This document shows positions 15,860 through 31,685 of a stretch of DNA of 64,000 bases, piece after piece; position 1 is the first letter of the stretch, and each line of letters opens with the position of its first letter. The stretch is from contig JAJFHE010000050.1 of NCBI GenBank assembly GCA_021775755.1, positions 62,001-126,000 of the forward strand, written 5' to 3'. A program made the translations under genes and the position numbers. Under the pieces are notes generated by a model that did not search any database, was not told the origin of the DNA, and worked only from the letters and a program-made list of their open reading frames with translations. This stretch comes from Hyphomicrobiales bacterium. Its GTDB lineage: Bacteria; Pseudomonadota; Alphaproteobacteria; Rhizobiales; JAJFHB01.

Positions 15860-16612
15860 CTACTTGTTGCCGGTCGGTGTGACCACGAGTTGTGCAATGT
15901 TGACATGATCGGGCGCACTCAAGGCGTAGATCACCGTGTCCGCGACTTCATCGGCGGTAAGCCAGTCCGGGAAGCCAGCGTAAAATTCATCCGCCATTGC
16001 GGTATCGCCGGCATGGCGCGCCTGGGCAAAGCCGGTCCGCACGAGGCCGGGCAGGACCTCGGTAATGCGCACCGGCTCTGTCTGATAGTCCTTGCGCAAG
16101 CTTTCGGTGAAGGCGCGCACGGCATATTTCGAGGCCGAGTACACGGACCCGCCGGCATAGGTCTGTTGTCCCGATACCGAGCCGATCGTAACGATGTGTC
16201 CGCGGCCGCGGGCGAGCATGCCCGGCAGTACGGCGTGGCATGAGGCCATGAGTCCCGTGACGTTTGTTTCGATGGTGCCGGCCCAGTCCTCCATCGTGCC
16301 CGCGTCGAAGCGCTGCCGTCCGCCGATATCGGAGCCGGCCGCGGCGACGAGGATGCTTATGTCGGCGAACTCTTCGGGAAGGGCTTCTTTGAGGTTGTCG
16401 GCAAAATCGGCATCGCAAACATCAAGCGCGACGCCGGCGACCTTGTCGCCGCAATGATCGCAAAGATCGACCAGCGCGTCGTGCGAGCGGCCGACGCAGA
16501 CGACTTTCAACCCGTGTTCAATGAGATCGACAACAACCGCCCGGCCGATGCCGCTCGTCGCGCCGGTGACAAGCGCGACAGTGCCGGGGGTGAGAAGAGT
16601 GGATTGTGTCAT
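15860..16612 (-). CDS. Short-chain dehydrogenase/reductase (SDR)
   Basis: This classical 250-residue SDR has TGATSGIGRAVV near residue 16, AAAGSDIGG near 90 and YSASKYAVRAF near 157 (catalytic Tyr and Lys). It ends ...VNIAQLVVTPTGNK, a C-terminus common in SDRs of the YdfG/clavaldehyde dehydrogenase-like type that act on hydroxy acids such as 3-hydroxypropionate or serine, although substrate cannot be assigned. Its start lies one base after the stop of the M20 hydrolase gene, and the GGGAGG site sits inside that gene's end, so the two are translationally coupled. Confidence 0.9.
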   Translation of the reverse strand: MTQSTLLTPGTVALVTGATSGIGRAVVVDLIEHGLKVVCVGRSHDALVDLCDHCGDKVAGVALDVCDADFADNLKEALPEEFADISILVAAAGSDIGGRQRFDAGTMEDWAGTIETNVTGLMASCHAVLPGMLARGRGHIVTIGSVSGQQTYAGGSVYSASKYAVRAFTESLRKDYQTEPVRITEVLPGLVRTGFAQARHAGDTAMADEFYAGFPDWLTADEVADTVIYALSAPDHVNIAQLVVTPTGNK

Positions 16613-19906: not shown

Positions 19907-21370
19907 ATGCTCAAACAACACGCCGTTCATCCCTTCGTGCGGGACCGCGACGCCTATGGCGACACCGGCCACAAAGTCGTGAACATGATCGAGGCCTACT
20001 TCGCCGATGTCCGCGACGGCACGCTCGACCGGCCGGTACCGCAGGCGCAGCGCGACAAGCTGATGAACCTGCCGATCCCTGAAGAGGGCCTTGAGGCGGA
20101 GGACATCCTTTCGTTCCTGCAGACCGACATCATGCCGTGGCCGCTGGCGACGGCGAGCCCGCGCTCCTATGCGTGGATCAACACGGGGCCATCGCCGATC
20201 GGTGTTGCCGTCGACCACATTTCAAATGCCATGAACACGGGCGTTGACGGTTATGACCATTCTAGCGTCTTCCTGAACATCTCGGTCGGGCGCTGGCTGA
20301 TGGAACTGACGGGCTTTCCGAGCGAGGAAAGCTTCGCCGTGCTGTTCTCCGGCGGTTCGGCGGCAAGCCTCAATGCGCTGACGGCAGCGCGCCATCACGC
20401 AGCCAAACAGGACGGCTGGAACATGCGCGAGGAGGGGCTGCAGAACGGCCATCCGCCCTTCGTCATATATGCCAGCGCGGAAGCCCACAGTTCCATCCAG
20501 AAGTGCGCCGAGCAACTTGGTATCGGCCGCCGTTTCATGCGCAAACTGCCAAGCGACGATGACTTCCGTATGGATGTGGCGGCGCTCGAGACGGCAATCA
20601 GGGCGGACCGGGAGCAGGGGCTGCGGCCGATGGCTGTGGCGGCCGCGGCGGGCTCGACGAATGTCGGCGTCATCGATCCGTTGGATGCAATCGCCGATGT
20701 TTGCGTGCGCGAAGACCTGTGGCTCCATGTGGACGGTGCCTATGGCGGTTTTGGCGGGCTTGATCCTGCTTATACCGATGCTTACCGGGGCATGGAACGC
20801 GCGGATACGCTGACCGTCGATCCTCACAAATGGCCGCAGGTGCCGCTCGATTGCGGTGCGCTCTTGATGCGCCACCCGGAGCGCCACTATGACGCCTATT
20901 CTCTGACGCCGGACTATCTGGTGGCACCGGACGGGAACACCGCGCGCTGGACCTATGAGTATATGTTTCAGCTCACCTACGCGAACCGCTCGCTCAAAAC
21001 CTGGGCGACCATCGCGCGGCTCGGACGCCAGGGCATGGCGGAGCTGGTAACACGCTGCAACGCTCTGGCTTCCATTCTTGGCGATCTGGTCGAGAAGGCC
21101 CCCGACTTTGAATTGCTGGCGCCGGTGTCACTGTCAGTCGTGAACTTCCGGTATGTGCCAAAGGGCGGAATGGACAATGCCGGGTTCGATGCCCTGAACG
21201 CGGCGATCGCGAACGCCATGACGCGCACCGGTGAGGTGCATATGGAGACCACCAAGGTGCGGGGCCGGGTGTCGCTGCGCGCGTGCATCCTGCACTACGA
21301 GAACTCGCATGACGATGTCGTGCACCTGATCGAACTGGCGCGGCGCTGCGGCGAAGAACTCTCAGGCTGA
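19907..21370 (+). CDS. Group II PLP-dependent decarboxylase (aromatic-L-amino-acid/glutamate decarboxylase type)
   Basis: This 487-residue enzyme has the group II decarboxylase pattern: FSGGSAASLNALTAAR near residue 145, AEAHSSIQKCAEQLG near 188, HVDGAYGG near 276 with the aspartate that pairs with the PLP ring, and VDPHKWPQVP with the Schiff-base lysine at K308. Members decarboxylate aromatic amino acids, glutamate or diaminobutyrate to amines. The exact substrate cannot be read. The gene ends by overlapping the end of the convergent CoA ligase gene by nine bases. It is transcribed alone from a spacer shared with the small membrane genes. Confidence 0.88.
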   Translation: MLKQHAVHPFVRDRDAYGDTGHKVVNMIEAYFADVRDGTLDRPVPQAQRDKLMNLPIPEEGLEAEDILSFLQTDIMPWPLATASPRSYAWINTGPSPIGVAVDHISNAMNTGVDGYDHSSVFLNISVGRWLMELTGFPSEESFAVLFSGGSAASLNALTAARHHAAKQDGWNMREEGLQNGHPPFVIYASAEAHSSIQKCAEQLGIGRRFMRKLPSDDDFRMDVAALETAIRADREQGLRPMAVAAAAGSTNVGVIDPLDAIADVCVREDLWLHVDGAYGGFGGLDPAYTDAYRGMERADTLTVDPHKWPQVPLDCGALLMRHPERHYDAYSLTPDYLVAPDGNTARWTYEYMFQLTYANRSLKTWATIARLGRQGMAELVTRCNALASILGDLVEKAPDFELLAPVSLSVVNFRYVPKGGMDNAGFDALNAAIANAMTRTGEVHMETTKVRGRVSLRACILHYENSHDDVVHLIELARRCGEELSG

Positions 21371-22969
21371 CCGCGTCACCTTGACGCCGGCGGCTTCGCG
21401 GTCCCAGGTTTCAGGCGTCAGGCCGCGGGCACGAAGATCGTATTTCTGGATTTTGCCTGTCTGGGTCTTGGGCAGCGCGTCGACGACTTCGACATAGCGC
21501 GGCACCATGTAATAGGCCATGCGCGGTTCGAGAAAGCGGATGAACTCTTCTTCATCGAGGTTTGCGCCTTCACGCAAAACCACAACCGCCATGACTTCCT
21601 GTTCGGTGTCGGCGGAGGCGACCGGGACAACCGCACTTTCCAGCACGGCGGGGTGGGCGTTCACTTCGTTCTCGACCTCCATCGATGAAATATTCTCGCC
21701 GCGGCGGCGAATGGCGTCGTTGGTGCGATCGACGAAGTAAAGATTTCCATCTTCGTCCTTCGACAGCATGTCGCCGGTGTGGATCCACTGGTTCACCCAA
21801 GCTTGTGCGGTTGCTTGCGGGTTGTTCCAGTAGCCCGCCATAACGATCCAGGGTTCTTTCGCCCGCACCAGCGCCTGGCCCGGAATACCCGGCGGCACTT
21901 CTTCATCGTCTTCATCGACGATGCGCACGTCGAACCGGTCATCGGCAACGCGTCCGCAGGTGCGGTTGTTGACGAGGGTGAAGCTGGAACGTGTCGGACA
22001 GTTCATCTCCGTGCCGCCCCAGGTCGTCGACGCCAGAACGCCAAAGCGCTTTTTGAAATCCTCGATTTCTGGAATGAGCGGCACGATGATCATGCGCTCA
22101 AGCGGGTTGTCCGCATCGTCGGATTGCGGCTCTTGTTGATAGATCCAGTTGACCATTGCGCCGAGAAGGAACGAGCAGGTAGCGCCGTGGCGCTTTATTT
22201 CGTCCCAGAACGACGTCAGCGAAAACGCCGTGGGAATGACGACGGTCGCACCTGCGATACAGCACGCGTAGACGCCCGCCCATTGCCCCGCAATGTGAAA
22301 CAGGGGCAGGGGGTTGTAGTGGATGTCCTTGTCGGTCAGTTCCAGCAGTTCGATGACGCAATGGGCGTACTCCCAAGCGTGGGCGTGGGTGATCATGACG
22401 CCCTTGGAAGGACCTGTCGTACCGGAAGTGTACATGACTGCGGTAAGGTCGCGGTAGCGCGGGCCGTCTTCGAGGCGAGTGCCGTTATCTGAAAAGTGCG
22501 CACTGATGGTGCTGCAAGTCAGCGCTTTCGAAATATCAGCTGTCTTGAATGCGGTTTCATCGCCGCAGAGGATGAGGTGCTCCAGATGATCGAGTTCGCC
22601 GGCCATGCTTGAGATGCGGTCGAGAAACTGCGCGTGAACGATCATCACGCGGGCTCGGCTGTCGTTCAGTATGTGTTTGAGGATGCCACCGCGCAGATGC
22701 GTGTTGACCTGCACCTCCATGGCGCCGAGTTTTGCAAGCGCGCACCATGCGTGAAGGATTTCGATTTCATCGGGAAGCATAACCAGCACAGTGTCGCCAC
22801 TCGCGATGCCTGAAACACCAAGCCCGCGGGCGAGGCTGTTCGTGGTCTCTTCCATCTCGCGATAGGACCAGGTTTTATCTTCCGTCACGATCCACGGCTT
22901 GTTGCCATAGGTGTCCGCACGATCGGCAAGCACCTGGGCCAATGTGTGGGATCGGCGATCGATGGACAT
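21362..22969 (-). CDS. AMP-forming acyl-CoA synthetase (CaiC-like)
   Basis: This 535-residue ligase carries the ANL-superfamily core: MYTSGTTGPSKGVMITHAH (phosphate loop) near residue 180, TWGGTEMNCP near 315, the WIHTGDMLSKDEDGNLYFVDR hinge near 398, and KTQTGKIQKYDLR near 510 with the catalytic lysine. It is most like the crotonobetaine/carnitine-CoA ligase and medium-chain ligase branch. It activates a carboxylic acid as acyl-AMP and then acyl-CoA. An AGGAGA site precedes the ATG. It lies 140 bp downstream of the C45 hydrolase gene on the same strand and might serve the amide cluster, but the gap makes that uncertain. Confidence 0.88.
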   Translation of the reverse strand: MSIDRRSHTLAQVLADRADTYGNKPWIVTEDKTWSYREMEETTNSLARGLGVSGIASGDTVLVMLPDEIEILHAWCALAKLGAMEVQVNTHLRGGILKHILNDSRARVMIVHAQFLDRISSMAGELDHLEHLILCGDETAFKTADISKALTCSTISAHFSDNGTRLEDGPRYRDLTAVMYTSGTTGPSKGVMITHAHAWEYAHCVIELLELTDKDIHYNPLPLFHIAGQWAGVYACCIAGATVVIPTAFSLTSFWDEIKRHGATCSFLLGAMVNWIYQQEPQSDDADNPLERMIIVPLIPEIEDFKKRFGVLASTTWGGTEMNCPTRSSFTLVNNRTCGRVADDRFDVRIVDEDDEEVPPGIPGQALVRAKEPWIVMAGYWNNPQATAQAWVNQWIHTGDMLSKDEDGNLYFVDRTNDAIRRRGENISSMEVENEVNAHPAVLESAVVPVASADTEQEVMAVVVLREGANLDEEEFIRFLEPRMAYYMVPRYVEVVDALPKTQTGKIQKYDLRARGLTPETWDREAAGVKVTRSA

Positions 22970-23110: not shown

Positions 23111-24097
23111 CTATCCACCGTTCGTCTCATCGGGCGTGTGGATCCGCCGGAAGCCTTCCTCGAAGTCCGTGAGGGAGAACGACCACACAGCTCCAGGCCA
23201 GCGAATTTCAAGCTTACGCTGAGCCGCCAGAAAGACCGCCGTGTAGAGTGTTCCGAAGCCGGCGGCGTAAGCAGTCGAGTAAAGTGGCGGTTTGAGAAAT
23301 GCACCAATGAACTTTTCAAGCGGGTCGACATGCAGGGTCAATCTCTGCAGCAGAAACCGTTCGCGTTCCACGGTTGCTGTAAATCGGGCGTGGCTGATCC
23401 ACTCCACCGTCTCCTGATGATTCGTCGCCACTGCCGCGTGTGTCAGGACAGTGGGCCTGTCCGGCGCCATTTGTGCCGTCAAGTACCGACGTTTCGCATC
23501 CAGCACAGTTACATTGTAGCTCATGTGTGTTGGCACGCGTGCGAGTACCGTGCCCGCTTGTTCGGTGGTTTCGCACGTTTGCAGCACGTAGCGCAGGATC
23601 AACGGTACGCCGAAACCGTCCCCGACCTCTCGCCGGCCGCCGAATGTCAGGGACACTGCCAGCCCTGCATCGTTGATCCCATCCACCAGACCCCACAGGC
23701 CATCGCTGGTTCCCATTACCTGGCGGCCTTGCCAGTTTGTGTGCAAGATCAAACTGTCGAATGCATTGGGCGCATAGTCATAGTTGCGAACCAGCACCGG
23801 CTCCTTGCCCGGCCACACTGCCTGCGAGCATCCTGACAAATACGGAGGAGGGCGGTAAAAACTCAAGAAACGGGCCGCCTGGTCTCCGCCCCCTGAAAGT
23901 TCACACAGTTGCTCATAGAGCGGCAGGATCTCCGGCATGTGTCGGTTTAGCATCCGCCGGCTTTCGAGATATGTCGGGCGCATTTCCACTCCATCGCGCA
24001 GCCACCAGCGGCGATAGACCGGCCAATACTGCCGGAATAGCTCGGCCCATTTTGAACCCGGCTCAGTTTCTGAGACCGCGCGCCACAGTATTTCCAT
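23111..24097 (-). CDS. C45-family Ntn hydrolase / acyltransferase (self-processing)
   Basis: This 328-residue protein fits the acyl-CoA:6-aminopenicillanic-acid acyltransferase and linear-amide hydrolase group. The likely nucleophile is C90 in LSGCSQAVW, after an N-terminal prosegment of 89 residues; family members cut themselves before this Cys (here a Gly-Cys bond). VLVRNYDYAP follows at 101-110, the next family hallmark, and SLTFGGRREVGDGFG and ATNHQET come later. Such enzymes hydrolyse or transfer amides. It is the last gene of the four-gene unit, eight bases after the ATP-grasp gene, and may trim or rebuild the amide that ligase forms. Confidence 0.82.
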   Translation of the reverse strand: MEILWRAVSETEPGSKWAELFRQYWPVYRRWWLRDGVEMRPTYLESRRMLNRHMPEILPLYEQLCELSGGGDQAARFLSFYRPPPYLSGCSQAVWPGKEPVLVRNYDYAPNAFDSLILHTNWQGRQVMGTSDGLWGLVDGINDAGLAVSLTFGGRREVGDGFGVPLILRYVLQTCETTEQAGTVLARVPTHMSYNVTVLDAKRRYLTAQMAPDRPTVLTHAAVATNHQETVEWISHARFTATVERERFLLQRLTLHVDPLEKFIGAFLKPPLYSTAYAAGFGTLYTAVFLAAQRKLEIRWPGAVWSFSLTDFEEGFRRIHTPDETNGG

Positions 24098-24105
24098 CGC
24101 GCCTG

Positions 24106-25557
24106 CTACAAGATCTTGAAAGCGGGTTCAGCCAGAACCGCCGCGGTGGGTAGAGGCCGGGCGGAAAAGCTCGACTTGATTCCGTGGATCCATTTTTTCG
24201 CACGTTCGTTTAGCTGGAATCCCTGAGTCATCGAGCGTCCCCGGGTTACCAGAATACCCAGATCAGCACCTTCATAGCGGTAGTCGCCCGGCTTCAGAAT
24301 GCGCAGGAAGAATGCTTCCTTTTCACTTTCTACGGCGCGCCGGTGATAATCGAACCGGTCGAACACAACGCTTCCATCTTCGCGCATGCGATAGATGCCT
24401 GTTTCGGGCGCCTGCGTGAGGATGTCGACGCTGTCGTCGGTATGTTTGATGACCATCTGCGACCAGCTGTCAATCATGTCGGGATCGGCCCAGCGCGCAT
24501 TCAGTTCGTCGATGTCCAGTTTGAATTGCTTCTTTGAGAACTCAAGCAGGTGAAACAGGAACAGCGGTGCATCTGCGTGCGCAAAGGCTGCGTGATTGGT
24601 CATCGACGACGCACCGGTGATGCGCGGGTTGATTTCACCCAGCCATATTTCGCCCGACTTTTTTTCAATCAGGAAATCGAGTTCGAAATAGCCGCGATAA
24701 CCTTCCTTACGTAACTGTTCACCGAATTTGAACGTCAGATCGCGCGCCCGTTGACGGGTTTTGGGGGGAAAGGCGGTGGCGAAAATTTCATTACCGCACC
24801 AGCCGCCGCGGTAGGGCGTCAGATCCTTGAAGCCGACGAGTTCCGTCATCAAGGGGCCAACAATGGTGCCTTGCGACGTGGCGCAGGCCTCGATCGCCGA
24901 CCCGCGGCAATCGATGCGCTTCATCACCTTGATTTCACCTTCGCCTACGATCTCATGTTCATGGCGCCGGAAATCGGCCTCGGATTTGATGAAGAAGGTG
25001 GTGTGGCCGCTGTCACCGAATGCCGATTGCAGCACGAGATCGTGGCCGATCCCGGCTTTGTCACAGACACTGCGCAGTTGGTCATAATCCTTGATTTCGC
25101 TTAATGCGTTTGGCACGGAGGGTACGCCCGCCTTATTGCCAATGCGTACGGTTTCGATCTTGTTGTCGCAACGCGTGCGTAACTTCGCCTTGGGAAACCA
25201 CACTTCACCGCCCAATTCTTTGGCTAAACGTTCGGTTTCTTCATCGAACATCAAGAACACGAACCTCGGTTTGCCACCTCTCCGTTTGATGAGATCAATC
25301 ACTTCCTTGTGCTGGAGCAAGTAGTTGTTGATGTCTTCAATGGACTGGAACTCGGCATGCGGTGCATCGGATGGACAGAACACGTTGGGATGGCGACCGT
25401 CGTAGCAATCGATGTAGCAAATGTATTTGAAATTTTTCGCCCATTCGTCCAATCCGAGAAGATTGAAGTTGGTTGCCGAAACAAAATAGATCGGATCCTC
25501 GTTACGGTGAAAGTAGCGACGGATCTCCGATATGTTCTTCAAGACTTTTGTCGGCAT
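24106..25557 (-). CDS. ATP-grasp ligase (carboxylate-amine ligase-like)
   Basis: The 483-residue protein has an N-terminal domain of about 130 residues with no family I recognise, then an ATP-grasp fold. KAGVPSVPNALSEIKDYDQL and LVLQSAFGDSGHTTFFI (near 185-205) bind ATP, and ELDFLIEKKSGEIWLGEINPRITGASSMTN (near 320-350) supplies the acidic metal-binding residues. ATP-grasp ligases activate a carboxylate as acyl phosphate and join it to an amine or thiol. A GGGAGA site precedes the ATG at 25557; the frame upstream of it overlaps the decarboxylase gene and is arginine-rich and unlikely. Placed between decarboxylase and C45 genes it probably couples the amine product. Confidence 0.85.
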   Translation of the reverse strand: MPTKVLKNISEIRRYFHRNEDPIYFVSATNFNLLGLDEWAKNFKYICYIDCYDGRHPNVFCPSDAPHAEFQSIEDINNYLLQHKEVIDLIKRRGGKPRFVFLMFDEETERLAKELGGEVWFPKAKLRTRCDNKIETVRIGNKAGVPSVPNALSEIKDYDQLRSVCDKAGIGHDLVLQSAFGDSGHTTFFIKSEADFRRHEHEIVGEGEIKVMKRIDCRGSAIEACATSQGTIVGPLMTELVGFKDLTPYRGGWCGNEIFATAFPPKTRQRARDLTFKFGEQLRKEGYRGYFELDFLIEKKSGEIWLGEINPRITGASSMTNHAAFAHADAPLFLFHLLEFSKKQFKLDIDELNARWADPDMIDSWSQMVIKHTDDSVDILTQAPETGIYRMREDGSVVFDRFDYHRRAVESEKEAFFLRILKPGDYRYEGADLGILVTRGRSMTQGFQLNERAKKWIHGIKSSFSARPLPTAAVLAEPAFKIL

Positions 25558-25583
25558 TGTCGTCTCCCTGGATTGTTTTTCGA

Positions 25584-28292
25584 TCAGGTCTTGCGGGCCA
25601 TTTGTCTGCTTAGGGCTTCTTTGGTGAACACGCGCAAACCCAGGTCCGCCCGGTATCCGTGAATTTCGCTTACGTCGAGCGCGCGCATGAATGCGAGAAT
25701 TTCTTGTGAAACGACTTGCCCGGGTACGAGAATCGGGAATCCCGGCGGATAAGGAATAATGAAGGACGCAGACACCAGTTCGTTTTCGTTTTCGTCGTCG
25801 TTCAGGTCCAGATAGTCGCAATTGTTTTCATCGTAGCTGAGGAAGAATGCCTCACGCATATCGCCTTCCGGGGTTTCCTGATCTGCTCTGAAAGAGTCAT
25901 GAAACCGGCTGAAATCGGGTAGGGGGGGAAAGTCTACCATGAGGTTTTTCACACGGCGCTCAAACGCAAGTCGCTCCATTTTCGACGCGTCGTCCAATAG
26001 ATCGTCGAGATCCTGGGCAATCTGCACGAGAACCTCAATCAGATAGGCAACAGACGATCGCGTAGTGCCGATATTGGTCATAAAAAGGACCGTGTTGCGC
26101 GACGTCTTGTTTATCTGGATGCCGTATTTGTCCATTAGGATCTGGGTCTTGAAAGTATCGCCGTCCCATCCGGTGCCGCCGACCAACAATGTCACTCGGG
26201 TTGCATCGAGTACAAATTCATCGCGGGCCCAACATTCCCAGATATCATTCCAACCCTGTTCGGGATCGTAATAGGAGGTTATGCCGCTTTCGCGGTGTTG
26301 TTCTGGGATCATGTCCCCTGCCGTCAGCAGCTTGAAGTATTTCTTGAGCAAGGGGTGCGTGGCGATCGCCCGGCGCATCGACATGGCCGCTTCGACCTGG
26401 CGTTGCACGAATTCAAAGCCCTCGAGCTCGACCTGGCGCCGTCCGACATCGAGACTGGCTATGATCTGGTAGTTAGGTGAGGTCGAAGTATGCGTCATGT
26501 AGGCTTCGTGGAAGGCCTGCTCGACTTCGCCCTTGAAGTCCTGATCGTTGACATGGATCATCGACCCTTGTCGAAGTGCAGTCAGCGTTTTATGCGTGGA
26601 TTGCGTTGCGTAGACCCTGACCCGCGCGTTGGGCGGAGCCAGTAATGTGGTGGTTAGCCAGGTTTCATCGTCGGCGTCTTCCAGTTCGAGCTTCTGTGCG
26701 GCATAGGCATCGATGTGGCGGGGATCCTTGAGCCGTTCACGCAAGATGTTAGCCACATTCATGGCGGTCCGCTGACGGTAAGTTGGACCAAACCGGGCGA
26801 ATGCGAACCAGGCCTCGTCCCAGAGGAATACCAGGTCCGGCTTGATCGCCAGACACTCCTGCATTACGCGCTCAACGTTGTAGACGATGCCGTCGAAGGT
26901 GCAGTTGGTCAGTAGCAGCATCCGAACACGGTCAAGTTTGCCCGCGGCCCGGAGCTTCAGCAACTGGCGCTTGACTTCGCGAATGGGTACGGCGCCGTAC
27001 ATCGAGTACTCGTTGAGGGGGTAGCTATCGAGATAGAGCACGTTGGCGCCGGACAAAACCATTCCGTAGTGGTGCGATTTGTGGCAGTCCCTGTCGACCA
27101 GCACAATGTCACCAGGGCGGATCAGAGCCTGCACAACAACTTTGTTGCAGGTCGATGTTCCGTTGGTAGCGAAAAATGTTTGTTTGGCGCCAAAGGCGCG
27201 AGCAGCGAGTTCCTGAGCTTCCTTGATCGGACCGTGCGGCTCAAGCAGGCTGTCAAGTCCACCCGAAGTGGCCGATGTTTCCGCCAGAAAAATGTTGGGG
27301 CCATAAAAAGCACCCATATCCTGAATCCAGTGTGAGCGCGAAATTGATTTGCCTCGGCTGATGGGCATGGCGTGGAAAACGCCGGTAGGTTGTCTCGAGT
27401 AGTCCTTTAGCGCTGTGAAGAATGGCGTTTTGAAACGCGCCTGGACGCCACGCAGAATGTTGAGATGCAGTTCGAGAAAGTCTTCCTGATTGTAGAAAAC
27501 GCGCCGGCACAGCCCCAAATCGAGCCCCGCGATCGACTCTACTGAGCGGTCGGTTATCAGATACGCGTCCAGTTCGGGTCTGACTTTTGCAATCAAACGG
27601 CACATTTCCGGGCCGTAGTTTTCAGGCACCAGATTGTCGATATCCTCGTCCGATCCCATACGTGCCAGGTAACGCGTCAGGATTGGAAGCTCGTTGTGTG
27701 ACTTCAACGACAGGCCCGGACGGACGACGACCGCCTGAATATTGTGGTTGAACAATATACCGATCAGTGCGTCTTCAAGACTGGGAACCACTACTGCTTC
27801 ATAAGTGAACTGGTCCTCGCCGCGTCGCATCCGGTGCATCGACGCCTTTAGCCAGCGTTCCTGATGCTCAGTCACATTGTCGACAATGAGGACTTCGAAG
27901 TAGGGCTTGGTCAGCGCTCGCGCTTCCGGCGACAATAGTGCTTCATCTTCCAGCTCCTCGTTCTCGCCATCGTCTCCTTCCAGCGGAATTGAGCGCCGTC
28001 GATAGGCCCCAGATGTCAATGCCCGCGTGATGCGTCGCACGGCAAACGCCAGGTCGTCAAAATTAAGATGATCAAACTGCCGGCGCAGTTGATTGAACGC
28101 TGATTTGCCCGGAAATGCCCAGTAGGTCTCAATAGGTTCGAGCGCGTCGAACAATTCTTCGATGCTGACCAGATGCTTTTTTGCAGGCTTGCCGTTCGAC
28201 CTGTTGGCCACGGTTTCGGTTGCTTCGCGCAATGCGCTCCATCGATCCGAGCGTAGCTGGATCGCACTGTAATAATCGCTCATGGATTGCAC
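25584..28292 (-). CDS. Orn/Lys/Arg decarboxylase, class III fold-type I PLP, extended N-terminus
   Basis: At 902 residues it is larger than the usual 710-760 of biodegradative arginine, lysine and ornithine decarboxylases. Residues 1-130 are extra. A response-regulator-like wing domain (about 133-295) precedes the PLP domain: NGTSTCNKVV near 380, DRDCHKSHHYG near 401-410, WDEAW (D492) and STHKTLTALRQGSM with the Schiff-base lysine at K568. A C-terminal domain ends ...YPPGFPILVPG. It makes an amine or polyamine from a basic amino acid; which one is unclear. GTG start with GGAG seven bases ahead. It is followed 26 bp later by the ATP-grasp gene. Confidence 0.88.
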   Translation of the reverse strand: MQSMSDYYSAIQLRSDRWSALREATETVANRSNGKPAKKHLVSIEELFDALEPIETYWAFPGKSAFNQLRRQFDHLNFDDLAFAVRRITRALTSGAYRRRSIPLEGDDGENEELEDEALLSPEARALTKPYFEVLIVDNVTEHQERWLKASMHRMRRGEDQFTYEAVVVPSLEDALIGILFNHNIQAVVVRPGLSLKSHNELPILTRYLARMGSDEDIDNLVPENYGPEMCRLIAKVRPELDAYLITDRSVESIAGLDLGLCRRVFYNQEDFLELHLNILRGVQARFKTPFFTALKDYSRQPTGVFHAMPISRGKSISRSHWIQDMGAFYGPNIFLAETSATSGGLDSLLEPHGPIKEAQELAARAFGAKQTFFATNGTSTCNKVVVQALIRPGDIVLVDRDCHKSHHYGMVLSGANVLYLDSYPLNEYSMYGAVPIREVKRQLLKLRAAGKLDRVRMLLLTNCTFDGIVYNVERVMQECLAIKPDLVFLWDEAWFAFARFGPTYRQRTAMNVANILRERLKDPRHIDAYAAQKLELEDADDETWLTTTLLAPPNARVRVYATQSTHKTLTALRQGSMIHVNDQDFKGEVEQAFHEAYMTHTSTSPNYQIIASLDVGRRQVELEGFEFVQRQVEAAMSMRRAIATHPLLKKYFKLLTAGDMIPEQHRESGITSYYDPEQGWNDIWECWARDEFVLDATRVTLLVGGTGWDGDTFKTQILMDKYGIQINKTSRNTVLFMTNIGTTRSSVAYLIEVLVQIAQDLDDLLDDASKMERLAFERRVKNLMVDFPPLPDFSRFHDSFRADQETPEGDMREAFFLSYDENNCDYLDLNDDENENELVSASFIIPYPPGFPILVPGQVVSQEILAFMRALDVSEIHGYRADLGLRVFTKEALSRQMARKT

Positions 28293-28376
28293 AGCTTATC
28301 TCCTCCCCGACCAACGCGAGGATCGACAAATGTGCTTTGTCCCTCATCCGGACTTCGGATGACCCCCTGGCCGTTT

Positions 28377-29348
28377 TCAGCCGTTTACTGTTTCACCCGT
28401 AATCGATGCCACCACATTACCAACGGGTTTTGGGTTCACATCCGCGCTCGTGAAATCGTAGAGAGAACTCGAATCGGCAAGTGTGCCAAGCGCCCCTTGT
28501 TTAGGAATTTCCAGTGGTCCCAACGCGTGCAAAAACTGATCTACGTTACTATCTCGATTGTACGCTGGAAAATCAACCGCACGATCCCGGAAGCTCTTGA
28601 GAACCTGTCCAAGCCCTTTCAAGCCGGTCTCGCGCTGGCGGCGGACATGATCGAGATCGATTTCGATGGGAAACATGTCTTCAAGTCCAGCCGACTGATG
28701 CAAGACGGTTGCGCTCGGATCAACTACGCACGAGCGGCCGACGCCGCCTGCGCCAAGGCCATTTACATCAAATACGAAGCACTGAAACTGGGCTGCCGTC
28801 GCCCGCGCAATCGCTAGTTCGGCGTCCCTGTCGGTTGTGCCAGTGAGTACCGGATGCAGCAATACCTCCGCACCCAGGCTGGTCAGGTGCCTGGTGGTTT
28901 CGGGAAACCAGATATCATAGCAGATGGACAATCCGAAGCGCCCAACGCCGGGCACGTCGAACACACAAAACTCGGTACCTGCGGCAACTCCCTGTTCGTA
29001 GGGGAGGAAGGGAAACATTTTTGAGTATTTCGCGACGATCTCACCTTGCGGGTCGATGACACTTGATGTGTTGAAAATCCGGCCGTCGGGAAGTTGTTCG
29101 TACGTCGAACCGGGAATGAGCCAAATGTTGTGGCGTCGCGCGTCTTGGCGGAAAAGCTCGATCGTTTCATTGCCCGGGGGAGCAGCAAAGCGCGGTAATG
29201 GTCCAAAAGGCGCGAGTTCGCTGAACAGCACCATTTGCGTCCACGGAAAACGTGCCATCAAGACATCAAGCCTGTGGCGCATATCCGCTACGTTGGAGTG
29301 CAGCGCTGCAACATGCATCTGAATGCCGGCTATCGCGAAAGGCGTCAT
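28377..29348 (-). CDS. Nitrilase-superfamily carbon-nitrogen hydrolase
   Basis: This 323-residue enzyme has the Glu-Lys-Cys triad of the family: E44 in FSELAPFG, K110 in AKYSKMFPF, and C143 in SICYDIWFPE. This makes it an amidase, carbamoylase or nitrilase-like enzyme. A C-terminal tail of about 80 residues after the core is unassigned. It is first in the four-gene unit, 84 bp before the decarboxylase gene. In polyamine pathways family members cleave N-carbamoylputrescine, so a role on an amide or ureido intermediate is plausible but not shown. Its ATG overlaps the stop of an upstream gene remnant (ATGA). Confidence 0.87.
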   Translation of the reverse strand: MTPFAIAGIQMHVAALHSNVADMRHRLDVLMARFPWTQMVLFSELAPFGPLPRFAAPPGNETIELFRQDARRHNIWLIPGSTYEQLPDGRIFNTSSVIDPQGEIVAKYSKMFPFLPYEQGVAAGTEFCVFDVPGVGRFGLSICYDIWFPETTRHLTSLGAEVLLHPVLTGTTDRDAELAIARATAAQFQCFVFDVNGLGAGGVGRSCVVDPSATVLHQSAGLEDMFPIEIDLDHVRRQRETGLKGLGQVLKSFRDRAVDFPAYNRDSNVDQFLHALGPLEIPKQGALGTLADSSSLYDFTSADVNPKPVGNVVASITGETVNG

Positions 29349-29606: not shown

Positions 29607-30623
29607 TCACGCGGCTTCGGTCATTTGACGACGCCGCTCTTTGAACTTGCTGTGCGAAGCGTCTGTGCCGTCATGAAATGACCCGAACCATTTGTCCCAG
29701 GGCATTTCGAGGTTGCCGTAATTGCACTCGAAGTAGCGGTGATGCATCTGGTGGTGGAAGGTGCCAAGGGCCAGTCGGCTCTTGTCCCTGACGAGCAGTC
29801 CCTGAAAACCGGTGTGAGAGGTTGCGGCCGTCAGGGCCTGATGCTGCATGTGGAACAGGATATGAAGGGGGTGTGCCGCCAGCACCAGGTGGATCGCAAT
29901 CGAGGAGAAGAAAATCAGATGCTCCACCGGGTGCATGGACAGGCCGGACCACGGGCCGACATTGGTGTTGCGATGGTGCAGGGCGTGAACGGTGCGGTAA
30001 AGCGGCGGCCAGTGAATGAGGCGATGGATCCAGTAGAAATGGAAGGATATCCACACCGGCGTGAGCCAGAACAGCGCCACGAACCAGACCGGATTGTCGC
30101 TCCAGGCCAGTAGCGGGGCATAGCCGTTGACCATGGCCCAGAACATCGCGACTTCGTAGGCCGTCCATAACGCCACGCCACTGCCGAGCGACCAGAACAT
30201 GTTGTCGAACACCTGGTCCTTGAACGTGAACGCGCGGTTATTTGTCGTCAGGTCGCGCCGGTCAAACTTCAGGCGCTTTTCCTGGCGCTTCCAGGTGTAG
30301 AAATATAGATGCAGACCGCCTGCGACGACGAGAAGCAGAATGATGTTGCGGATGTAAATTTCCGCGATCCATCCGGCCGCAAGTTCTTTTGTTTCCTCCA
30401 GAGGCGGCTGGAACCAGAACCACGATATGGCCGCAACGATGACAAGCAGCGAGTTTTCCGCAACCGCAAACCATCTGTCCGCAACCCAGCGCAGCATCCG
30501 CAAGGGATCGGGCGGCCAGGTAAAAAATGGCGACGCCTTGATCGGAACCGGTGGGCGGTGATGCCACTGCCGGGCAAATGTGCTTTCGCTTGCGCCCGCG
30601 GTGTTGGCGGTCGTTTCCTGCAT
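29607..30623 (-). CDS. Sterol desaturase/fatty acid hydroxylase family membrane protein
   Basis: This protein of about 338 residues has several membrane segments and the di-iron histidine clusters of the family: HFYWIHRLIHW, then TVHALHHRNTNVGPWSGLSMHPVEH, and later FHHQMHHRYFECNYGN. The last region is characteristic of the C-5 sterol desaturase-like branch. Substrate unknown. An upstream TTG at 30680 would add 19 residues, but the ATG at 30623 is a better start. The gene is divergent from a LysR regulator; an inverted-repeat box between them suggests LysR control. It is unlike the family member near 4 kb, being longer and with more sequence before the first cluster. Confidence 0.85.
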   Translation of the reverse strand: MQETTANTAGASESTFARQWHHRPPVPIKASPFFTWPPDPLRMLRWVADRWFAVAENSLLVIVAAISWFWFQPPLEETKELAAGWIAEIYIRNIILLLVVAGGLHLYFYTWKRQEKRLKFDRRDLTTNNRAFTFKDQVFDNMFWSLGSGVALWTAYEVAMFWAMVNGYAPLLAWSDNPVWFVALFWLTPVWISFHFYWIHRLIHWPPLYRTVHALHHRNTNVGPWSGLSMHPVEHLIFFSSIAIHLVLAAHPLHILFHMQHQALTAATSHTGFQGLLVRDKSRLALGTFHHQMHHRYFECNYGNLEMPWDKWFGSFHDGTDASHSKFKERRRQMTEAA

Positions 30624-30709
30624 GTTTCGAGTGTCCAAACGGCTGCTGCTCTCCCGGCCACAATATTTCACAACTCCCAAAGTTTGAAAAACTGAACGTT
30701 TCGATCCAT

Positions 30710-30730
30710 AACATCAAATTATTCGATGTT
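30710..30730. promoter_or_regulatory. Probable LysR-type operator (AACATC-N9-GATGTT)
   Basis: A perfect 6-bp inverted repeat AACATC / GATGTT with a 9-base AT-rich spacer contains ATC-N9-GAT, a known LysR-type binding pattern. It lies between a LysR gene and its divergent neighbour, about 20 bases before the GTG start preferred for the regulator. Confidence 0.5.
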
Positions 30731-30752
30731 TTGGCAAAGGAAGAACAATCCG

Positions 30753-31685
30753 GTGCGGGTTTCGATCAAGGCATTGCAGTATTTCATGTGTGCGGCAGAA
30801 CGCGGCTCGATTGCACAGGCGGCCGAGAGTTTGAATGTCGTGCCGTCCGCGGTATCGAGCGCCATTGAACTCGTCGAGACGGAGTTCGCCCTCAAACTGG
30901 TGCAGCGTTATCCCGCGAAAGGGATCAAGCCGACCGCCGCGGGCATCGCGATCATGCGAAAGATCCGACATCTGATCGAGGAGTACGACAACCTTCTTCT
31001 GGAGGGTGCGGAGCTGCGTACGGCACTGTCGGGCAGCATTTCAATCGGCTACTACGCGCCCGTCGCACCCGCATTCATGCCGCAAATCGCCGGACCTCTG
31101 GTTCGCGATCACCCCGGAGTAACATTAAGGCTGGTGGAAACCGACAACGAGCAGGTGCAAAGCGGCCTTGCCGACGGTGAGTTCGACGTGATTTTATTTG
31201 TGGCTGAAAATGTCAGGACAGGCATTGTCTGCAAGCCGTTGATCGACGCACCGCCTTACGTTCTTGTTCATCGCGGCCATGAATTCTGCGGGCGAAAGTT
31301 TGTCACACAGGCGGACCTTCAACACGAGCCGCTGGTGCTTCTCGACCTGCCGATGACGAACGAGTATTACCGCAACCTTGCGCAGGATGCGGGAGCCGGC
31401 GCAAATGTCGTGGCGACGGCGTCCACCCATGAGATGGTGCGCAGCCTTGTCGGCGCCCGTGTCGGGAGCTCAATCCTCAACATGCTTCCCTCTACCGCCA
31501 TCACCTATGCCGGCGACGAAGTTGTCGCCATCCCGGTTCAATCGGAGGTGCGGCCCCTCAGGTTGGTGCTCGGCCATGTTGGCGGCAAGCCCCGCCGGCT
31601 GGTGCAGGCGTTCATGGACGCTTGTGCAGGCTATTTCGCTCAAGACGCGGCGCGCGAGTTGATCGTATCCTGCGAACCCGATTGA
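30753..31685 (+). CDS. LysR-family transcriptional regulator
   Basis: This protein of about 310 residues has an N-terminal winged helix (ALQYFMCAAERGSIAQAAESLNVVPSAVSSAI) and a LysR substrate-binding domain (SGSISIGYYAPVAPAFMPQI near residue 90, later MVRSLVGARVGSSIL). It would control its own gene and the divergent sterol-desaturase-like gene in response to a small ligand. An ATG at 30726 is in frame, but it overlaps the inverted-repeat box at 30710-30730, and GGAAG sits well spaced before the GTG at 30753, so the GTG start is preferred. Confidence 0.88.
   Translation: MRVSIKALQYFMCAAERGSIAQAAESLNVVPSAVSSAIELVETEFALKLVQRYPAKGIKPTAAGIAIMRKIRHLIEEYDNLLLEGAELRTALSGSISIGYYAPVAPAFMPQIAGPLVRDHPGVTLRLVETDNEQVQSGLADGEFDVILFVAENVRTGIVCKPLIDAPPYVLVHRGHEFCGRKFVTQADLQHEPLVLLDLPMTNEYYRNLAQDAGAGANVVATASTHEMVRSLVGARVGSSILNMLPSTAITYAGDEVVAIPVQSEVRPLRLVLGHVGGKPRRLVQAFMDACAGYFAQDAARELIVSCEPD

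What the first reader, a model, noticed from the sequence alone, without database searches (positions are those of the whole stretch)
23111..29348. Compact four-gene set: nitrilase-fold amidase, large Orn/Lys/Arg decarboxylase, ATP-grasp ligase, C45 Ntn acyltransferase
The four genes run on one strand with gaps of 84, 26 and 8 bases. Seen: intact catalytic residues in all four (E44-K110-C143; K568; ATP-grasp acidic loop; C90). Known: such decarboxylases make amines or polyamines, ATP-grasp enzymes join carboxylates to amines, C45 enzymes transfer or cleave amides, nitrilase-fold enzymes cut amides or carbamoyl groups. Inferred: a pathway that makes an amine from a basic amino acid, links it to an acid, and remodels the amide. 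I know no described pathway with this exact set. The extra 130-residue N-terminus of the decarboxylase and the lower G+C of sampled lines (27, 30 and 31 of 60 at 25441, 26041 and 26521, against 43 of 60 at 16021) suggest an acquired unit.
Basis: partly seen in the sequence, partly recalled or inferred. Interest (0 to 1): 0.75.

Follow-up and report, generated by a model that had tools for sequence, protein, structure and literature searches.

The report
Widespread four-gene amide-metabolism operon
Four neighbouring genes that travel together in many bacteria look like an undescribed pathway that makes a small amino acid and joins or cuts amide bonds with it; one gene, named a basic-amino-acid decarboxylase, probably acts on an acidic amino acid instead.

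Summary
Four intact genes (NIT, DEC, GRASP, C45) lie on the minus strand, gaps 84, 26 and 8. In one family of another class the set sits inside the ectoine-degradation operon in 18 of 20 regions fetched. The basic-amino-acid reading is weakened: the Glu proposed to bind lysine in lysine decarboxylase is Asn in 110 of 110 DECs, and an Arg is gained beside the PLP lysine (108 of 108 readable); a sister clade (8 loci) pairs with AspT-family antiporters. DEC belongs with M. tuberculosis Rv2531c, activity unknown in print. GRASP, named 'biotin carboxylase', lacks that enzyme's motif in 128 of 128 ORFs. In six loci without DEC beside it, GRASP-C45 lie in an arginine-to-GABA type cluster. Best reading: DEC makes an omega-amino acid (beta-alanine or GABA), GRASP couples it by an amide bond, C45/NIT cleave. 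Product unknown. Five paper searches found nothing on the set.

The parts
28377..29348 (-). NIT: nitrilase-fold carbon-nitrogen hydrolase, 323 aa; E44-K110-E118-C143
   Evidence: PF00795 100 bits; no NCBIfam equivalog over its cut-off; catalytic residues invariant in 103 of 103 homologous ORFs
25584..28292 (-). DEC: 902-aa PLP decarboxylase of the Rv2531c branch of the Orn/Lys/Arg decarboxylase superfamily; PLP lysine K568; R574 and N728 differ from canonical members
   Evidence: PF01276 260 bits; PDB chains 9n0n/9n0o 829 bits; residue states
24106..25557 (-). GRASP: 483-aa ATP-grasp ligase of the NF005096/PRK06524 family, named 'biotin carboxylase' but without the RIQVEH motif
   Evidence: NF005096 758.7 bits, cut-off 684; motif in 0 of 128 ORFs; E292, E308, N310 invariant in 40 sequences
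23111..24097 (-). C45: 328-aa Ntn acyltransferase/amidase, nucleophile C90
   Evidence: NF040521 180.5 bits, cut-off 85; predicted fold (pLDDT 79.9) matches isopenicillin N acyltransferase 2x1c, E 1.5e-10

Best explanation
The four genes are one metabolic module. Shown: they are a conserved unit of intact enzymes. Inferred, in falling order of support: (1) GRASP is an ATP-dependent carboxylate-amine (amide) ligase, not a biotin carboxylase. (2) DEC removes the alpha-carboxyl of an acidic amino acid (aspartate or glutamate) and so makes an omega-amino acid, beta-alanine or GABA. (3) GRASP uses that omega-amino acid as one partner of an amide. (4) C45, after self-cleavage before Cys90, hydrolyses or transfers that amide, and NIT cleaves a related simple amide. 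Where a class-III aminotransferase or GabT lies next door the omega-amino acid may then be burnt; in family f232 the module hangs on ectoine breakdown, whose end product is aspartate. The second partner of the amide, and whether the net direction is synthesis or breakdown, are unknown.
For: Unit: in 80 loci found by GRASP, DEC 80, C45 79, NIT 77. Pocket: the residue equal to LdcI Glu526 (probable lysine-binding residue by docking, PMC5607190, passage) is Asn in 110 of 110 DECs and Glu in 4 of 5 canonical paralogues of related genomes; residue K+6 is Arg in 108 of 108 readable DECs and Ser in 5 of 5 canonical ones; the Rv2531c alignment shows the same Asn and K+6 Arg. AspT: 8 DEC loci without GRASP carry an AspT-family antiporter and form one clade (100/100); none of 110 loci has both; aspartate 4-decarboxylase lies near in L173 and L174, HdeA/HdeB-type chaperone in L173. 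Ectoine-to-aspartate genes flank the set in 18 of 20 f232 regions. An SDF-family symporter follows C45 in L177 (DctA 363 and GltP 324 bits, both below cut-off). GabT-like genes within 10 kb in 29 of 80 loci, class-III aminotransferase right after C45 in 22 of 80. Six loci without DEC beside GRASP-C45 hold a 5-guanidino-2-oxopentanoate decarboxylase, aldehyde dehydrogenase, D-amino-acid dehydrogenase and racemase; five of the six also a ureohydrolase (annotated agmatinase) and NIT. GRASP lacks RIQVEH in 128 of 128 ORFs. C45 fold.
Against: No substrate was measured. Asp versus Glu is not separated: AspT and ectoine point to Asp, GabT and the arginine cluster to GABA. That R574 touches the substrate is inferred from its place after the PLP lysine only. 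Another study puts E387 and E391 of a CadA at the substrate site (PMC6297170, passage), and a Glu at what I take to be the E391 position is kept in DEC (E591; numbering recalled). Rv2531c lacks the second Arg (Ile at +4 of the Asn). An agmatinase-family gene over the TIGR01230 cut-off (185 against 174 bits) lies 1.6 kb before NIT in L157, with a homologue in L217, which fits an arginine reading. In one of the six arginine-type plasmids (Roseateles XES5) a DEC exists 550 kb away. C. necator pBB1 has NIT-GRASP-C45 without DEC among genes with no clear GABA link. A GRASP paralogue (about 45% identical) occurs without DEC (L209, L210, L212-L214, L254). The GRASP model was too poor to use (pLDDT 45.7). 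In the window's genome ectoine hydrolase is on another contig.
Confidence: 0.42

Rival explanations
1. One reading: DEC makes a diamine or agmatine from Lys, Orn or Arg; GRASP joins it to an acid; C45 and NIT remodel the amide.
For: PF01276 family; agmatinase-family gene near L157 and L217; HDAC-family gene (a family that includes acetylpolyamine hydrolases, recalled) near L146; Glu of the FxEA motif kept.
Against: Glu526-equivalent is Asn in 110 of 110 and Arg gained at K+6; AspT sister clade; the M. tuberculosis homologue adi/Rv2531c was not crucial for growth on arginine (passage of PMC4569260).
Confidence: 0.2
2. DEC decarboxylates 2,4-diaminobutyrate, the ectoine intermediate, to 1,3-diaminopropane, and the other three genes process that diamine.
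For: Set inside the doe operon in 18 of 20 regions; DABA is the product of DoeB (PMC5924519, passages); ectB-annotated gene near DEC in L172.
Against: Arg gained and Glu lost in the pocket do not suit a second positive charge; AspT clade; the arginine-type clusters that carry GRASP-C45 have no annotated DABA gene.
Confidence: 0.14
3. An amide-protection catabolic route like the Puu pathway: GRASP caps an omega-amino acid or amine, an aminotransferase and dehydrogenase oxidise it, and C45 or NIT remove the cap.
For: Ligase and hydrolase in one operon; class-III aminotransferase right after C45 in 22 of 80 loci and TRAP permease genes in 38 of 80; PuuC-like dehydrogenase (656 bits, below the 850 cut-off) in the C. 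necator cluster.
Against: Transporter and aminotransferase were not found around many of the 80 loci, nor among the window neighbours scanned; no oxidase or dehydrogenase is constant.
Confidence: 0.17
4. GRASP is a true biotin carboxylase subunit, as its database name says.
For: NF005096 name and weak similarity to carboxylases.
Against: RIQVEH absent in 128 of 128 ORFs; no biotin carrier or carboxyltransferase family among the window neighbours scanned.
Confidence: 0.02

Closest known systems
M. tuberculosis Rv2531c (PDB 9n0n, 9n0o, 9n0p)
   Same: Homologue of DEC over residues 13-900 (829 bits), same Asn and K+6 Arg in the printed alignment
   Different: Ile instead of the second Arg; activity not established (PMC12910592, passages); its gene neighbours were not examined here
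E. coli LdcI/AdiA-type extended Orn/Lys/Arg decarboxylases
   Same: PLP fold family, SxHK motif, PF01276
   Different: Glu526 equivalent is Asn, K+6 is Arg; longer N-terminus
Isopenicillin N acyltransferase and insect Tan (N-beta-alanyldopamine hydrolase)
   Same: C45 fold; Tan is self-cleaved at Gly-Cys and resembles isopenicillin N acyltransferase (PMC5085778, passages); C45 has Gly before the Cys in 107 of 118 ORFs
   Different: Substrate unknown; 13-16% identity in the best structural alignments; Tan itself was not compared by sequence
Halomonas elongata doeABX-doeCD ectoine degradation genes
   Same: Homologous flanking genes in f232 genomes
   Different: In H. elongata doeX is followed directly by doeC, without the four genes (PMC3187862, passages); the window's set has no doe gene among the neighbours scanned
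AspT-AspD aspartate:alanine exchange systems
   Same: AspT-family gene beside the sister clade of DEC in 8 of 8 loci
   Different: Those loci lack GRASP, C45 and NIT

Membership tests
Orn/Lys/Arg decarboxylase superfamily (PF01276) | Profile match over gathering score and PLP-binding SxHK lysine | tested here: met
   260.3 bits against 27; STHK, K568
Lys/Orn/Arg decarboxylase by function | Acidic residue equal to LdcI Glu526, proposed to bind the basic side chain | tested here: not met
   Asn in 110 of 110; Glu in 4 of 5 canonical paralogues
Acidic amino-acid decarboxylase by function | Decarboxylation of Asp or Glu | not testable with these tools
   Only context and residues
NF005096/PRK06524 | Score over curated cut-off | tested here: met
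   758.7 against 684
Biotin carboxylase by function | R-I-Q-V-E-H motif (recalled as the bicarbonate/biotin site) | tested here: not met
   0 of 128 GRASP ORFs; 20 ORFs in loci L032-L053 (weak NF005096 matches) bear it
C45 Ntn family (NF040521, PF03417) | Score over cut-off, nucleophile Cys, IAT fold | tested here: met
   180.5 against 85; Cys 118 of 118; 2x1c top hit
C45 Ntn family | Self-cleavage before the Cys | not testable with these tools
   Gly at 89 in 107 of 118
Nitrilase superfamily (PF00795) | Profile match and Glu-Lys-Cys | tested here: met
   100 bits against 23.2; 103 of 103
Named nitrilase equivalogs (AguB, deaminated-glutathione amidase, formamidase) | Score over the model's cut-off | tested here: not met
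   55.8-58.7 bits against cut-offs of 355-410
Ectoine-degradation cluster | doeA/B/C/D beside the set | tested here: not met
   None among the six neighbouring genes scanned; the one ectoine hydrolase over cut-off in the genome is on contig C30, the window on C45. Met in 18 of 20 f232 regions

The most novel reading that the evidence does not exclude
The operon is a bacterial counterpart of the insect black-ebony-tan cycle, built mostly from other enzyme families: an aspartate decarboxylase of a new kind (DEC, the Rv2531c family) makes beta-alanine, an ATP-grasp ligase (GRASP, in Ebony's place) conjugates it to an amine or amino acid, and a C45-type Ntn hydrolase, which like Tan resembles isopenicillin N acyltransferase, releases it, storing or silencing a small molecule made during ectoine, aspartate or arginine metabolism.
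Probability: 0.15. Interest if true: 0.85.

Novelty: new variant of a known kind. Interest (0 to 1): 0.6.

Why it matters
The residue and context evidence also gives a first testable substrate class for a decarboxylase family whose M. tuberculosis member has solved structures but no known activity.

Tried and rejected
Acquired-island reading: G+C difference is small and five relatives do not show it. FAH (29607-30680), LysR (30726-31685), acyl-CoA ligase (21362-22969) and the GAD-type decarboxylase (19907-21370) as parts: in the 80 loci no FAH, LysR or GAD hit at E<=1e-15, only weak ACS hits in 3 loci and QOR in 2. Pantothenate reading (DEC only replaces PanD): the window genome has panC and no panD, but two f232 genomes and the AspT-type G038 have panD as well, and G213 with the set has neither gene, so it is at most one role. 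GRASP structure: 40 close sequences gave pLDDT 45.7, not used. Ectoine co-occurrence in alphaproteobacteria: ectoine hydrolase over cut-off in 16 of 23 genomes with GRASP against 16 of 53 relatives without a full-length DEC (Fisher p 0.002); the groups are not matched by kinship (the 53 are all of the window's order, the 23 are not), so this is weak support only. Papers: PRK06524 0; ectoine+nitrilase+ATP-grasp 0; Ruegeria/C45/nitrilase set, 4 of 5 terms, 0; C45 family peptidase/biotin carboxylase/carbon-nitrogen hydrolase/decarboxylase, 3 of 4 terms, 1, unrelated by its listing; broader set 5, unrelated by their listings.
Full report
Observation. The four ORFs, their strand, gaps and catalytic residues are as stated. 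Family scans agree for NIT, DEC and C45; GRASP has no Pfam match but is a strong member of NF005096/PRK06524.

Conservation. In these 80 loci DEC is present in 80, C45 in 79, NIT in 77, in the order NIT-DEC-GRASP-C45 (in L080 DEC is read as two ORFs); the loci lacking NIT (L062, L095, L103) or C45 (L099) end there. FAH, LysR and GAD of the window have no match there, ACS weak matches in 3. In even draws the set is uncommon: GRASP over cut-off in 7 of 289 genomes of the class, E<=1e-40 in 11 of 398 of the phylum, E<=1e-100 in 14 of 397 of the order (two with the paralogue only) and 40 of 151 of family f232 (one with the paralogue only). Searches by DEC instead of GRASP give: 8 full-length DECs in 61 relatives, 6 with GRASP and 2 with AspT; 16 plasmid regions fetched of 39 records, 9 with GRASP, 5 with AspT, 2 with neither. 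Many of the 80 named loci are Rhodobacterales; plasmid copies occur in Roseobacter, Rhizobium, Sinorhizobium, Cupriavidus and others.

Order changes but the set holds. NIT-GRASP-C45-DEC in L145-L147; NIT and C45 divergent from DEC-GRASP in L148; DEC-GRASP-C45 without NIT nearby in L149, L150 and in Rhizobium and S. meliloti SM11 plasmids. On Rhizobium plasmids L181 and L183 a peptide-type ABC importer and an amidase follow.

Ectoine link. In f232 the four genes lie between doeA-doeB plus an AsnC/Lrp gene (doeX) and doeC in 18 of 20 regions fetched (doeD seen in 17 of the 18); one further region shows doeCD only and one holds only the GRASP/C45 paralogue. The two f232 regions first seen, L145 and L147, show the same. 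The doe names rest on TIGR02993 (670 and 654 bits over the 613 cut-off in G691 and G417), AstE/AspA, an aminotransferase over the PRK07482 cut-off and an SSADH-like dehydrogenase below the SSADH cut-off, and on the published gene order of H. elongata, where doeX and doeC are adjacent (PMC3187862, passages). The term 'nitrilase' is in neither that paper nor the 2018 review, and 'decarboxylase' and 'carboxylase' are not in the review (main-text counts). f232 is unnamed; calling it halomonad-like would be my inference from this likeness.

What DEC acts on. phmmer finds Rv2531c as the nearest solved protein by far (829 bits; next 210.8) (name from PMC12910592). That review says its activity is not clarified (passages). 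In the printed alignment DEC reads QINKTS where lysine and arginine decarboxylases read VEKTG; Glu526 of that stretch was proposed to bind lysine (PMC5607190, docking, passage). Aligned with five canonical decarboxylases of related genomes, 22 of 22 DECs have Asn there and Arg at K+6; the canonical ones have Glu in 4 of 5 (Ser in L015) and Ser at K+6 in 5 of 5. Over 110 DEC loci: Asn 110, Arg at K+6 108 (2 unreadable by the pattern), Arg four residues after the Asn 109 (Pro once). One acidic residue lost and an Arg gained argue for an acidic or neutral side chain. Against this, a mutational study puts two other Glu residues, E387 and E391, at the substrate site of a CadA (PMC6297170, passage), and a Glu in the FxEA stretch is kept in DEC.

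Sister clade. Of 110 DEC loci 100 hold GRASP, 8 hold AspT, 2 neither, none both; 77 of the 110 were found by GRASP. On a maximum-likelihood tree of 43 rows the AspT loci are one clade (100/100). AspT is annotated aspartate-alanine antiporter in five plasmid records, with aspartate 4-decarboxylase near in L173 and L174 and an HdeA/HdeB-type chaperone in L173; L151 scores 617 bits over the 547 cut-off, L152 matches the Pfam permease family. L180 has ectoine-utilisation genes beside DEC-aspT.

GRASP without DEC beside it. In L186, L187, L188, L208, L216 and L211 GRASP-C45 stand between an aldehyde dehydrogenase and a D-amino-acid dehydrogenase/racemase pair, with a 5-guanidino-2-oxopentanoate decarboxylase; five of six also have a ureohydrolase (annotated agmatinase) and NIT (56% identical to the window's in L186). 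That 4-guanidinobutanoate and GABA lie on such a route is described for S. meliloti (PMC7268258, passages). So in these six an omega-amino acid could come from arginine. Exceptions: the XES5 plasmid has a DEC 550 kb away, L189 (C. necator) lacks DEC without such a route, and the paralogue loci lack it too. Chromosomes of the plasmid hosts were not searched.

Other neighbours. Of 80 loci: TRAP permease 38, TAXI binding protein 35, GabT-like 29 (28 at 54% identity or more); a class-III aminotransferase right after C45 on the same strand in 22, PRK07483 type in the 3 tested. In L177 the gene after C45 is an SDF-family symporter (DctA 363.4 and GltP 323.9 bits, both below cut-off) and a MocR-type regulator is divergent. 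These lean to omega-amino and acidic amino acids; the agmatinase-family gene of L157 (TIGR01230 185.4 bits, cut-off 174.3) and its homologue in L217, and an HDAC-family gene near L146, lean to arginine or polyamines.

GRASP and C45. GRASP keeps E292, E308 and N310 (roles in ATP-grasp recalled) but reads NPR[IV][TSC]G where carboxylases read RIQVEH; 0 of 128 ORFs have that motif. C45 predicts well (pLDDT 79.9, pTM 0.84) and matches isopenicillin N acyltransferase first. The insect enzyme Tan, of the same resemblance, hydrolyses beta-alanyl amides, and works with an aspartate decarboxylase (Black) and an ATP-driven beta-alanyl ligase (Ebony) (PMC5085778, passages). The likeness of three roles is the basis of the novel case; it is analogy, not homology, for two of the three.

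Conclusion. A real, widespread operon for which five paper searches found no description; a decarboxylase whose name probably misleads and a mis-named ligase; an omega-amino-acid amide pathway as best reading, product unknown.

Noticed in passing
window 19907-21370 (+): A second PLP decarboxylase (PF00282; 195 bits to NF052646, DABA decarboxylase, below its cut-off of 900) lies near the set but has no match in the 80 loci.
   Followed up: partly
window 29607-30680 (-): Fatty-acid-hydroxylase (PF04116) gene upstream on the same strand; no match near the set in the 80 loci.
   Followed up: partly
G000 (window genome), contig C18: panC present, panD not found; same in G043, G138, G164, G141, G403 and G020, so their beta-alanine source is open.
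   Followed up: partly
L175, L181, L183: On Rhizobium plasmids radical-SAM epimerase and C-methyltransferase genes with a Nif11-type leader (hypothetical in L183) and a Glu/Leu-type dehydrogenase stand divergent from DEC-GRASP-C45.
   Followed up: no
L178: DEC-GRASP-C45 next to nifHDKEN on a Rhizobium leguminosarum plasmid; DEC is annotated as two ORFs.
   Followed up: no
L209, L210, L212-L214, L254: A GRASP paralogue about 45% identical occurs without DEC, sometimes with C45 or NIT near.
   Followed up: partly
L154: NIT is only a 113-aa ORF fragment here while DEC, GRASP and C45 are full length.
   Followed up: no
L187: A plasmid recorded as Roseateles (flagged UNVERIFIED_ORG) carries a cluster with proteins 91-96% identical to Shinella; the host name may be wrong.
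   Followed up: no
L186, L187: Divergent from the arginine cluster: nadE, adenylate-forming enzyme, acyl carrier protein and asnB genes, an unexplained small set.
   Followed up: no
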